Source: Punctularia strigosozonata HHB-11173 SS5
Lineage: Eukaryota > Basidiomycota > Agaricomycetes > Corticiales > Punctulariaceae
Direction: 5' to 3'
DNA: 64,000 nt
Assembly: GCF_000264995.1 (NCBI RefSeq)
Contig: NW_006767437.1
Coordinates: forward strand, 796,881-860,880
A program made the translations under genes and the position numbers. Positions within the stretch are counted from its first letter, which is position 1. Every line of letters starts with the position of its first letter. Of this stretch, positions 40,776 through 43,482 are shown piece by piece. The notes beneath the pieces were generated by a model that made no database searches, had not been told where the DNA came from, and saw only the letters and a program-made list of their open reading frames with translations.

Positions 40776-43482
40776 TCAACCCTTCATGCCCACCATGGCG
40801 AGTTGCTTCACGATACGCACGCAGTTGTTTTCGGCCCTCAAAGCCCGCATGTCACAAATCGCCGTGTTCTTGCAGTCGTCGGTACACGCCGTGACCTCCG
40901 CGATCGTCTCCCGGCTTAGCCGCGCATTGTAAAGCTGGAACGCGTCGTCGTCGGACTCGAAGACCTCCGTGAGCTTGTGCCAAAACGAAGCGTTAAGCGC
41001 ATCTGTAGGGCCGAGATTACCAACAAGCGGCCCGTAGCTGTCTCGAGCACTGAGGAAGGGACGTTTAGTCGATTCATGAACATGTGCGGTAACCGGCCTT
41101 GATTCACCTATAATACAGCTCCCATGTGGCTGGGATTATCGTCAGCAAGTGGCTGCAAACGTCGACCTCAGCGGCACGTACGTTGAGTTTGGAATCCCGG
41201 CGAGCTGATGTTGGCTACAACGACATCAGTCCCGATCTCTTAGCAGTGGAATGCGGATACGACGACGAACCGATATATTCTCGTGCGTCGATAACTTCGA
41301 ACGTGTCTGGATCAATGTCGTAAATCTTGAACGCTGGGTTACCGCCTACAAGACACGACGATCAATCTCTCCAAACTATACGGCTTACATCCATGCATAC
41401 TGGTAGGAGTGAGTGCAGGAGCAATGAGAGCGACGCTCGTTGCCGTAGACGCGGTCTGGTCGTTGTAATCCGAGTACGCAATCTCGAATTGATCCTAGGG
41501 AAGTGTGAGGTCGCAATTAATAAGCTGTACTGTTAAGTACGTAACTCACCTTATGACTGTGACCAAAGAACTGCACTGCAATCGTGTTTTTATACCGCTG
41601 CACTATCTGGTCATAATAGTTGGACTTGATCATGATGTAAATGAGCAGGTGCACGATATGTGTAGCGGAAAGATGCCTCACCTGATCATTCAACGCGTCC
41701 TCCTACTCGTCTGGTTAGCAAACAGTAGCCGTGGAGACTTCGCTATATTACCTTCCCCAAGGGCATGTGTCCAATGATGCACGCTCGTTGACCGGCGTCT
41801 TCCGCGCTCTGCAACTCCTGCACCATGAATCCAAGGATCCCGTTGGGATCGGTTCTGAAAGGATAGATTAATATCAAAACGACGAGATCGGATCACCGTA
41901 CTGTTGCGTGTCGCTGTCATAAACCCAGAAGCTAGGTAGGAAACCATGAGCGCGAAGGGTATCACCGATGAGTTGCGCTTACTTTTGTTTGTACCAATAC
42001 TGCGTGTTGACCGAAATGATTCTAGAGCGACGAGATTCAGATCAACACCTGTCTTTCGAATCGCTGATGCTTACTTCAGATCTGTCCCTGGTACGATGAC
42101 AGAGTAGCTGCCCGACATGTGATCCAGCTGGTTCGCTGCGGATGAGTTGATCCATCGCTACACAAAGTGTCAAGGATGTCTCGACCGAAATTGGGTGCAT
42201 GGCTCACGGTCCATCCGGCACTCTGCGTATCGAATACCCATTGCGAGTCTATTGTCGTGGTTGTCGTGTTCCTTGGGAAGCTGTTCACAGGCGCTGCGTC
42301 GCTGTTACGAAGTGAGTAAAGATATCAAATTAATGCTGTGCTTCGCTGCTCACTGATTGCCTGATTAACCGGAAATAACTCGTTGATCGGGATACGAGGA
42401 GACAGATGTAGGAAGATTACCTATGGCTCCAAAAACAGGGGCACCGAGCTTAGATGCCATCTCCGCATTGAATGCCTCCAAGTCACCCGTGACCTCGCTA
42501 TGAAAGTGCTTTGTTTGATGATGTGTCAGATACACGTTTGGCGCGAAGGCTTACGTCTGGTTAACGAGCCATACCTCTCCTGCGGATTTACTCAACACTC
42601 GGTTCCGAATGTATGCCAATAACACAAACCTTCCACTACGTCGCCCGTGAAGATGGAAAAGCGAGCGGATCCACCGAAGTGTTGAGCAGCTTCAAGCATT
42701 GAATCCGCGAGGGAAACCGGGCTGTCACATCGGCTATTGCCATTTGGTTCCGCTGGTTCTGTCACGGAGCCCGTCTGATCCTCAAAATTGCGGCAACAAA
42801 TGGGCTTCGTGCAATTCGCCTCGGAGCCCACGGTATAAGATCTGTCGATATGAACGTCGCTGAAATGAATGACCTGCATACGTAAAAAAGAGTCAGTAGT
42901 CACCGGCGGATCAATGGGCTACTGATTCCGAACCTGGAAGGGTGCTTTGCCAGAGGATACGAAAGCCTTGGGGTTGGTCGGTGCCGCACTTGGGAATGGC
43001 ACAGTGAAGGCGTTCACAGCTTCCGATGACGCGTTACCACGAATCAGATGCAAGCGATAGTATGCTTATCGTGTCTTACCCGGGGGCTGGCATAGCCCGA
43101 AAACTGCATCCAGGAATTTCGACGCAGTTTGTCCGGTCGCCGAGATTTGGCGTAGATCATGCGCGAGAATCGGTCCCTGTTCTCCGATCGCGCCCGCGCA
43201 CACGTCGTCGTCCTCGAGCTGGGGTGGCCTCGTGAATGTCTCGTTCGTTGGGAAAAGCAGAAAGAAGCCTACGTTGAAGTCTTGGCAAATAGCCACGATA
43301 GTATCAACAAACGCGTCGTTTCCCAGGGCAGCGAGCGCCTGCAACGGAACCATCAAAACATGGCCTGAAGCACAATCCACCGCGTTCTCGAGCGCGGTCT
43401 CAATATCGCTGAGAAGGTCTGCAGCCACATGAGAAGCGATGAGCACTGCCAAAGCAAGATAAAGTAACAGCGAGCCTAGCAT
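40776..43482 (-). CDS. secreted acid sphingomyelinase-like phosphodiesterase
   Basis: This calcineurin-like metallophosphoesterase probably cleaves sphingomyelin or related phosphodiesters outside the cell. The signal peptide is MLGSLLLYLALAVLIASHVA. A saposin-B-like Cys-rich segment follows (VDCASGHVLMVPLQALAALG, then CAGAIGEQGPILAHDLRQI). The metal motifs appear in order: VIHFSDVHIDRSY, FSIFTGDVVEG, and GNHDAAPVNSFPRN. The middle of that last motif comes from a 7-nt microexon at 42354-42360. The C terminus has the family's Cys cluster (VTACTDDCKNTAICDMRALR). More than a dozen introns cut the gene. Many exons at 41.0-42.1 kb are very short, so residue-level models there are tentative. Confidence 0.87.

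What the first reader, a model, noticed from the sequence alone, without database searches (positions are those of the whole stretch)
42354..42360. 7-nt microexon completes the GNHD metal motif of the sphingomyelinase
Without it the motif breaks. The minus-strand reading ATA G|GC AAT CA|C GAC joins GAI to GNHDAAP only if TGATTGC (plus strand) is an exon, flanked by AG/GT signals with introns of 60 and 52 nt. The catalytic His then comes from a codon split over the microexon and the next exon. Seven nucleotides is near the lower size limit seen for exons.
Basis: partly seen in the sequence, partly recalled or inferred. Interest (0 to 1): 0.75.

Follow-up and report, generated by a model that had tools for sequence, protein, structure and literature searches.

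The report
Seven-base exon encodes enzyme's active site
In a wood-rot fungus, a seven-base exon appears to supply the asparagine and histidine at the metal site of a sphingomyelinase-like enzyme; the public model of this gene leaves it out, and many public models of related fungal genes are disturbed at the same spot, which suggests the tiny exon is old, shared and often missed.

Summary
Confirmed by sequence, not by RNA. The window lies on a 2,271,234-base contig of Punctularia strigosozonata. The minus-strand gene (43482..40526) is an acid-sphingomyelinase homologue, 21 exons in my model. Exon 7 is GCAATCA (42360-42354), between GT-AG introns of 60 and 52 nt. It completes Gly261, encodes Asn262 and starts His263 of GNHD; in human ASM the Asn binds zinc and the His is an active-site residue. 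Among in-frame splice choices only this exon gives GNHD with the upstream protein intact; 0 of 20,000 shuffles do. The public model of this locus (P0001) uses one 127-nt intron (18 other introns: 47-61 nt) and lacks GNHDA. Of 154 listed protein models (P0001 included) 117 are intact at the motif, 32 differ in length there and 5 are changed in place; six control motifs have 0-4 length changes. The disturbed models are scattered over the tree (at least 27 changes) and include six orders. A constitutive, old, routinely missed microexon is the best reading. Against: no RNA, weak acceptor scores (the public join's acceptor scores higher), no relative's DNA readable, so conservation is inferred from protein models.

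The parts
42354..42360 (-). 7-nt microexon GCAATCA (exon 7): last two bases of the Gly261 codon, Asn262, first two bases of the His263 codon
   Evidence: the only in-frame solution found that restores GNHD with the upstream protein intact
42361..42420 (-). upstream intron, 60 nt, gtaatc...aatcag
   Evidence: donor score rank 10 of 20 introns, acceptor rank 19 of 20; only YTNAY branch-site candidate is 4 nt from the 3' end
42302..42353 (-). downstream intron, 52 nt, gtgagc...taacag
   Evidence: donor rank 8 of 20, acceptor rank 15 of 20; four YTNAY candidates
42421..42497 (-). exon 6, 77 nt, ends ATA G (first base of the Gly261 codon)
   Evidence: protein alignments
42208..42301 (-). exon 8, 94 nt, begins C|GAC (third base of the His263 codon, then Asp264)
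   Evidence: protein alignments
42294..42420 (-). single 127-nt intron implied by the public model P0001 (G|gtaatc...gacgcag|CGCC), which deletes GNHDA
   Evidence: P0001 sequence; the one of 5 one-intron solutions that gives ...GAIAPVNS; 127 nt against 47-61 nt for the 18 introns elsewhere in the gene
40526..43482 (-). acid-sphingomyelinase-like gene, 21 coding exons in my model, 621 aa
   Evidence: corrected model; PF00149, PF19272; best solved structure 5fi9, E 3.9e-59; both run on a 611-aa first model; P0001 agrees apart from GNHDA and an in-frame 54-nt C-terminal segment
42555..42579 (-). 25-nt exon 5 (GEVWLVNQT), a neighbouring small exon; its product is in the public model
41682..41702 (-). 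21-nt exon 13 (EDALNDQ); its product is in the public model
41108..41129 (-). 22-nt exon 18; its product is in the public model

Best explanation
GCAATCA at 42360-42354 is a genuine, normally included 7-nt coding exon of a basidiomycete acid-sphingomyelinase homologue. Two short introns of 60 and 52 nt, each of ordinary size for this gene, are recognised by intron definition and removed one after the other. Because seven bases leave little room for both splice sites to be occupied at once, removal is probably sequential, with the better-marked downstream intron first (inferred). Joining completes G-N-H-D: Asn262 is a predicted zinc ligand and His263 a predicted active-site histidine. Skipping shifts the frame and stops after a few codons, so inclusion is required for an active enzyme. 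The public annotation missed the exon and restored the frame with one overlong intron and a shifted acceptor. The clustered disturbance at the same residues in models from other Agaricomycetes suggests that the microexon is shared and routinely missed. Shown: sequence, uniqueness, the public mis-join, the clustering. Inferred: use in RNA, order of splicing, conservation as a 7-nt exon in relatives.
For: Only GNHD-restoring solution with intact upstream protein; 0 of 20,000 shuffles. Flanking introns of 60 and 52 nt match the other 18 introns (47-61 nt, mean 54.4, sd 4.0); the annotated 127-nt intron lies 18 sd out. Motif window intact in 117 of 154 models, length changed in 32 (P0001 among them), against 0, 2, 4, 0, 1 and 4 of 154 in six control motifs; and 32-33 at the two microexon junctions against 1-12 at 17 other junctions, one further junction in the divergent tail set aside. 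Disturbed models are scattered, at least 27 changes on the tree. 8 of 8 homologues known only from short jgi or lgn contigs are intact. A solved acid sphingomyelinase (5fi9) aligns its GNHE to GNHD.
Against: No RNA evidence. Both acceptors score low on a small model from the 18 other introns (ranks 19 and 15 of 20; 1.67 and 2.26 bits, median 4.34), while the acceptor implied by the public model scores 5.77; the upstream intron lacks a well-placed branch-site match, as does one other of the 20 introns. DNA of orthologues could not be read: searches found none, in collections (viral, prokaryote) where fungal DNA is hardly expected. Some variable loops also give high length-change counts in this alignment.
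Confidence: 0.88

Rival explanations
1. The public model is right: a single 127-nt intron joins exon 6 to 42293, and this gene encodes a protein lacking GNHDA, hence a catalytically dead sphingomyelinase relative.
For: That is the deposited model; the join is in frame and its acceptor scores higher (5.77) than the microexon acceptors.
Against: 127 nt is far outside the gene's intron range. The other metal-site residues (D151, H153, D223 and the GH.P and GH.H histidines) are present and invariant in the 15 sequences of alignment A1. 0 of 20,000 shuffles give a GNH[DE]-encoding microexon with correct phases. A dead enzyme would not be expected to keep an intact hidden exon.
Confidence: 0.04
2. 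The microexon is real but its inclusion is regulated: skipping or retention makes a frameshifted mRNA, so splicing acts as an on/off switch for the enzyme.
For: Weak acceptor and poor branch-site match in the upstream intron; skipping and downstream retention both give early stops; a regulated 20-nt microexon is reported in Trichoderma (PMC11121469, passages).
Against: No expression data. Weak signals are also expected for a constitutive microexon: in plants, upstream introns of microexons are often removed late (PMC8831610, passages).
Confidence: 0.08
3. The clustering in relatives reflects an ordinary intron-rich site with varied intron positions, or alignment effects, not a shared 7-nt exon; the microexon is private to Punctularia or a few lineages.
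For: No orthologous DNA was read; 117 of 154 models are intact and some may encode GNHD in one exon; a few variable loops give equal or higher length-change counts.
Against: 17 other junctions of the gene show 1-12 length changes of 154, against 32-33 here. Disturbed models from at least six orders sit beside intact close relatives. All 20 one-residue-short models carry a residue compatible with read-through into a GTNN|GT donor at the same phase; this is weak, about 0.04 by chance.
Confidence: 0.2

Closest known systems
Small plant microexons (1-15 nt; PMC8831610, start of abstract in a search listing and passages seen)
   Same: Tiny coding exons, conserved over long times, often missed by annotation; omission alters functional protein parts
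   Different: Plants, RNA-supported; here a fungus, 7 nt between very short introns, metal-site residues of one enzyme, no RNA yet
Microexons in Phanerochaete chrysosporium P450 genes (PMC1184071, passages seen)
   Same: White-rot basidiomycete, short introns, exons as small as 6 bp
   Different: In the passages seen they are listed from gene structures without a tie to a catalytic motif; here the exon is pinned by a strongly conserved active-site motif and by a public model that misses it
Trichoderma virens Xlr2 microexon (20 nt; PMC11121469, passages seen)
   Same: Fungal microexon missed by the JGI model and encoding essential domain residues
   Different: 20 nt, transcription factor, ascomycete, glucose-regulated with RNA evidence; here 7 nt, enzyme, no evidence of regulation
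Mammalian acid sphingomyelinase SMPD1 (5fi9 by sequence; PMC4961792 and PMC5062611, passages seen)
   Same: GNH[DE] loop carrying the Zn1-binding Asn (N318 in human) and active-site His (H319 in human; His317 of PMC4961792 taken as its equivalent, inference)
   Different: Fungal protein, 204-bit match to 5fi9; activity on sphingomyelin untested

Membership tests
Microexon (internal coding exon of 15 nt or less with canonical splice sites) | Internal exon of 15 nt or less flanked by GT-AG introns | tested here: met
   7 nt, AG|GCAATCA|GT, introns 60 and 52 nt
Microexon (internal coding exon of 15 nt or less with canonical splice sites) | Needed for the conserved reading frame and motif | tested here: met
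   Only GNHD solution with intact upstream protein; 0 of 20,000 shuffles
Microexon (internal coding exon of 15 nt or less with canonical splice sites) | Included in mature RNA | not testable with these tools
   No RNA data of this strain was at hand
Microexon (internal coding exon of 15 nt or less with canonical splice sites) | Conserved in orthologues | tested here: inconclusive
   Protein-model evidence only: 32 of 154 length changes at the motif against 0-4 in controls; no orthologous DNA found
Acid sphingomyelinase (SMPD1-like) | Metallophosphatase domain plus ASMase C-terminal region | tested here: met
   PF00149 33.1 bits and PF19272 27 bits, both over cut-off (611-aa first model)
Acid sphingomyelinase (SMPD1-like) | Di-zinc ligands Asp-x-His, Asp, Asn, His, His-x-His | tested here: met
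   SDVHID, TGDV, GNHD (only with the microexon), GHMP and GHSH align with 5fi9; ligand list from PMC5062611 (passages)
Acid sphingomyelinase (SMPD1-like) | N-terminal saposin domain | tested here: inconclusive
   No saposin model at E 0.001, but the 5fi9 alignment starts at residue 55, before the metallophosphatase match at 145
Acid sphingomyelinase (SMPD1-like) | Hydrolyses sphingomyelin or a related sphingolipid | not testable with these tools
   No assay

The most novel reading that the evidence does not exclude
The 7-nt exon is an ancient element shared by several orders of Agaricomycetes (Corticiales, Agaricales, Russulales, Polyporales, Gomphales, Hysterangiales), and its inclusion is used as a splicing on/off switch: skipping or delayed upstream-intron removal turns off an acid sphingomyelinase by deleting its metal-site Asn-His and shifting the frame.
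Probability: 0.07. Interest if true: 0.75.

Novelty: new member of a known kind. Interest (0 to 1): 0.5.

Why it matters
If right, a public protein record is wrong at the most important residues of the enzyme, and up to about a quarter of the 154 models looked at may be wrong there too, so that they could be called inactive or left out of functional predictions. It gives a concrete case of an enzyme whose zinc ligand and active-site histidine depend on a 7-nt exon, a test bed for how a short-intron fungus splices exons too small for two splice sites at once, and a simple way to look for more: conserved active-site motifs that break at one place in many gene models.

Tried and rejected
Rejected: single-intron joins (5 in frame, none gives GNH[DE]); skipping and downstream-intron retention (early stops); a second GNHD solution using donor 42444, because it deletes GAPVFGAI. 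My first model used a wrong acceptor for exon 9 (80-nt intron); P0001 and the homologues support 42157 instead, and one search is the corrected model. Searches were run with the 611-aa first model.

Led nowhere: viral-contig scan with P0003 (9 pattern matches, no relative) and genome-contig scan with alignment A1 (164 pattern matches, no relative); both collections are of viral or prokaryote origin. No paralogue in the same genome was found with this protein (all 12 matches lie in this gene; the search goes exon by exon, so short exons limit it). Paper PMC86406 is not held (only its reference entry was seen). The search for Punctularia strigosozonata with sphingomyelin gave 0 papers. Decoding one-residue-short models as GTNN|GT donor read-through fits 20 of 20, but about 0.85 of all residues would fit, so it is weak. 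No structure prediction was run.

Full report
What is there. The window is G000:C5:796881-860880 of a 33.57-Mb assembly. P0001 and my model are 100% identical over 602 tree columns, the motif columns being left out, so I take P0001 as the public model of this gene. The species is a basidiomycete of the order Corticiales.

Gene model. On the minus strand the gene runs 43482..40526. My corrected model has 21 coding exons and 621 aa. It matches PF00149 and PF19272 and solved acid sphingomyelinases, best 5fi9 with E 3.9e-59; both searches used a first model of 611 aa that lacked ten residues after residue 294. The 18 introns other than the two in question are 47-61 nt (mean 54.4, sd 4.0). The gene has other small exons of 21, 22 and 25 nt, whose products are in the public model.

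The seven bases. Exon 6 ends ...GGA GCC ATA G; the next GT-AG intron is 60 nt (42420-42361); then GCAATCA (42360-42354); then a 52-nt intron (42353-42302); then C GAC GCA GCG CC. The product reads GAI-G261-N262-H263-D264-AAP. The microexon holds one whole codon (Asn) and parts of two others (Gly, His). Skipping it reads GAIATQRL and stops; keeping the downstream intron reads GAIGNQ and stops.

Is it more than chance? I enumerated splice choices from exon 6 to exon 8 with GT or GC donors, AG acceptors, introns of 30 nt or more and a middle exon of up to 60 nt. Of 5 one-intron in-frame solutions none gives GNH[DE]. Of 106 two-intron solutions 2 do, both through this same 7-nt exon, and one of them deletes GAPVFGAI upstream. 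In 20,000 dinucleotide-preserving shuffles of the interval (introns of 40 nt or more), none gave GAIGNH[DE], although 14,991 gave some in-frame open microexon of 60 nt or less. So an open microexon alone would mean little; the one that restores the motif means a great deal.

What the public model does. P0001 reads GAPVFGAI-APVNSFP: it lacks GNHDA. The one-intron solution that gives this uses the same donor and an acceptor 8 nt inside exon 8, making one intron of 127 nt, 18 sd above the other introns of the gene. P0001 also reads through the last 54-nt intron of my model in frame (VRCRGRLQRKGLPSSSLQ), and 621 - 5 + 18 gives its 634 aa.

What the residues do. The 5fi9 alignment places GNHD on GNHE. 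In human ASM N318 coordinates Zn1, and H319 is proposed as proton donor (PMC5062611, passages). In the other structure paper His317, which I take as the equivalent residue, is more likely substrate-binding; its mutation only slightly reduces activity on a small substrate but abolishes it on liposomes (PMC4961792, passages). Without the microexon both residues are absent. As a control, 8 of the 8 loci fetched for other metallophosphatase matches of the same genome (17 matches) carry GNHE in one contiguous frame; two of the loci overlap and show the same motif, so these are 7 distinct places. They look like PPP-type phosphatases (recalled), not sphingomyelinases.

Relatives. Three searches listed the best 120 each of 583, 483 and 323 hits, 154 distinct proteins in all; the unlisted hits were not examined. 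At the motif window 117 of 154 are intact, 32 differ in length and 5 are changed in place. P0001 is one of the 32. One of the 32, P0141, still contains GNHD, behind a 17-residue insert, so 36 of 154 lack GNH[DE] in the window. Length changes in six other family motifs are 0, 2, 4, 0, 1 and 4 of 154; in-place departures from my search patterns there are 6, 4, 14, 4, 2 and 22. Around the exon junctions of my model the length-change counts are 33 and 32 at the two microexon junctions, and 1 to 12 at 17 others; the last junction (153) lies in the divergent tail and was set aside. Variable loops also give high counts, 31 at residues 488-496, 120 at 490-498 and 149-152 around 527-539, so a count alone does not prove misannotation. 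The state changes at least 27 times on a FastTree tree built without the motif columns, and disturbed and intact models sit side by side, for example P0084 and P0104. That pattern fits annotation error, not inherited loss. Disturbed models come from Corticiales, Agaricales, Russulales, Polyporales, Gomphales and Hysterangiales (one species of each looked up). Eight homologues known only from short jgi or lgn contigs without organism names are all intact. Two of them, P0015 (contig 2,207 bases) and P0110 (2,046 bases), are too short to hold some 20 introns and so probably come from spliced RNA (inference). P0015 falls in a six-row clade with disturbed models P0041 and P0068, and P0061 lies nearest to disturbed P0024; P0052 and P0073 lie in a clade without disturbed models. 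With 8 rows this is only consistent, not proof.

What speaks against. No RNA was available. On a small splice-site model made from the other 18 introns the donors are average (ranks 10 and 8 of 20), but the acceptors are weak (ranks 19 and 15 of 20), and the acceptor of the public model scores better (5.77 against 1.67 and 2.26). The upstream intron has no YTNAY branch-site candidate except one 4 nt from its end (one other of the 20 introns has none at all), whereas the downstream intron has four. I take this as a hint that the downstream intron goes first; plants show late removal of upstream introns of microexons (PMC8831610, passages). No orthologous DNA could be found, so the claim of a shared 7-nt exon rests on protein models.

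Comparison with what is known. Microexons are established: 1-nt exons, and 2,398 small plant exons of which most were not annotated (PMC8831610, listing and passages); exons down to 6 bp in Phanerochaete P450 genes (PMC1184071, passages); a regulated 20-nt exon in Trichoderma that the JGI model missed (PMC11121469, passages). The literature searches on microexons, of which I saw listings, and the search on this species with sphingomyelin (no paper) showed no title that describes this case; the library holds open-licence papers only. It is therefore a new member of a known kind, unusual for its size and for carrying metal-site residues, and it exposes an error in a public model that is probably repeated in others. 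Statements on intron definition and steric limits rest on general knowledge; the fission-yeast study on this was seen only as a reference entry.

Verdict. Confidence that the 7-nt exon is used is about 0.88; that it is shared across orders, about 0.75; that it is a regulated switch, under 0.1.

Noticed in passing
40577-40630 (minus strand): The public model P0001 reads through this 54-nt GT-AG intron in frame, adding VRCRGRLQRKGLPSSSLQ near the C-terminus; which form is real is open.
   Followed up: partly
about 44240-45000 (minus strand): The upstream neighbour on the same strand looks like the end of a DEAD-box RNA helicase (HRVGRTARAGRTG and a GRG-rich tail), read by eye only.
   Followed up: no
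L001, L002, L004 (G000:C7, about 480,400-486,400): Three PF00149 genes of similar sequence lie within about 6 kb on one strand, a probable tandem array of PPP-type phosphatases.
   Followed up: no
P0041 (Ramaria rubella): Its motif reads AIGESMLMSQRLSD; GES is what a GTGAGT donor read in frame after the split Gly would give, which hints at the same phase-1 donor there (inference).
   Followed up: partly
P0027 (Galerina marginata) and P0019 (Amylostereum chailletii): In-place changes of the motif (GNPE and GEHD) without a length change; sequencing error, annotation error or real active-site change not distinguished.
   Followed up: no
P0046 (Vararia minispora): A Russulales protein that groups with Irpex, Cytidiella and Trametopsis proteins (P0043, P0102, P0031, P0042; support 100) in the tree; paralogy or gene transfer not examined.
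   Followed up: no
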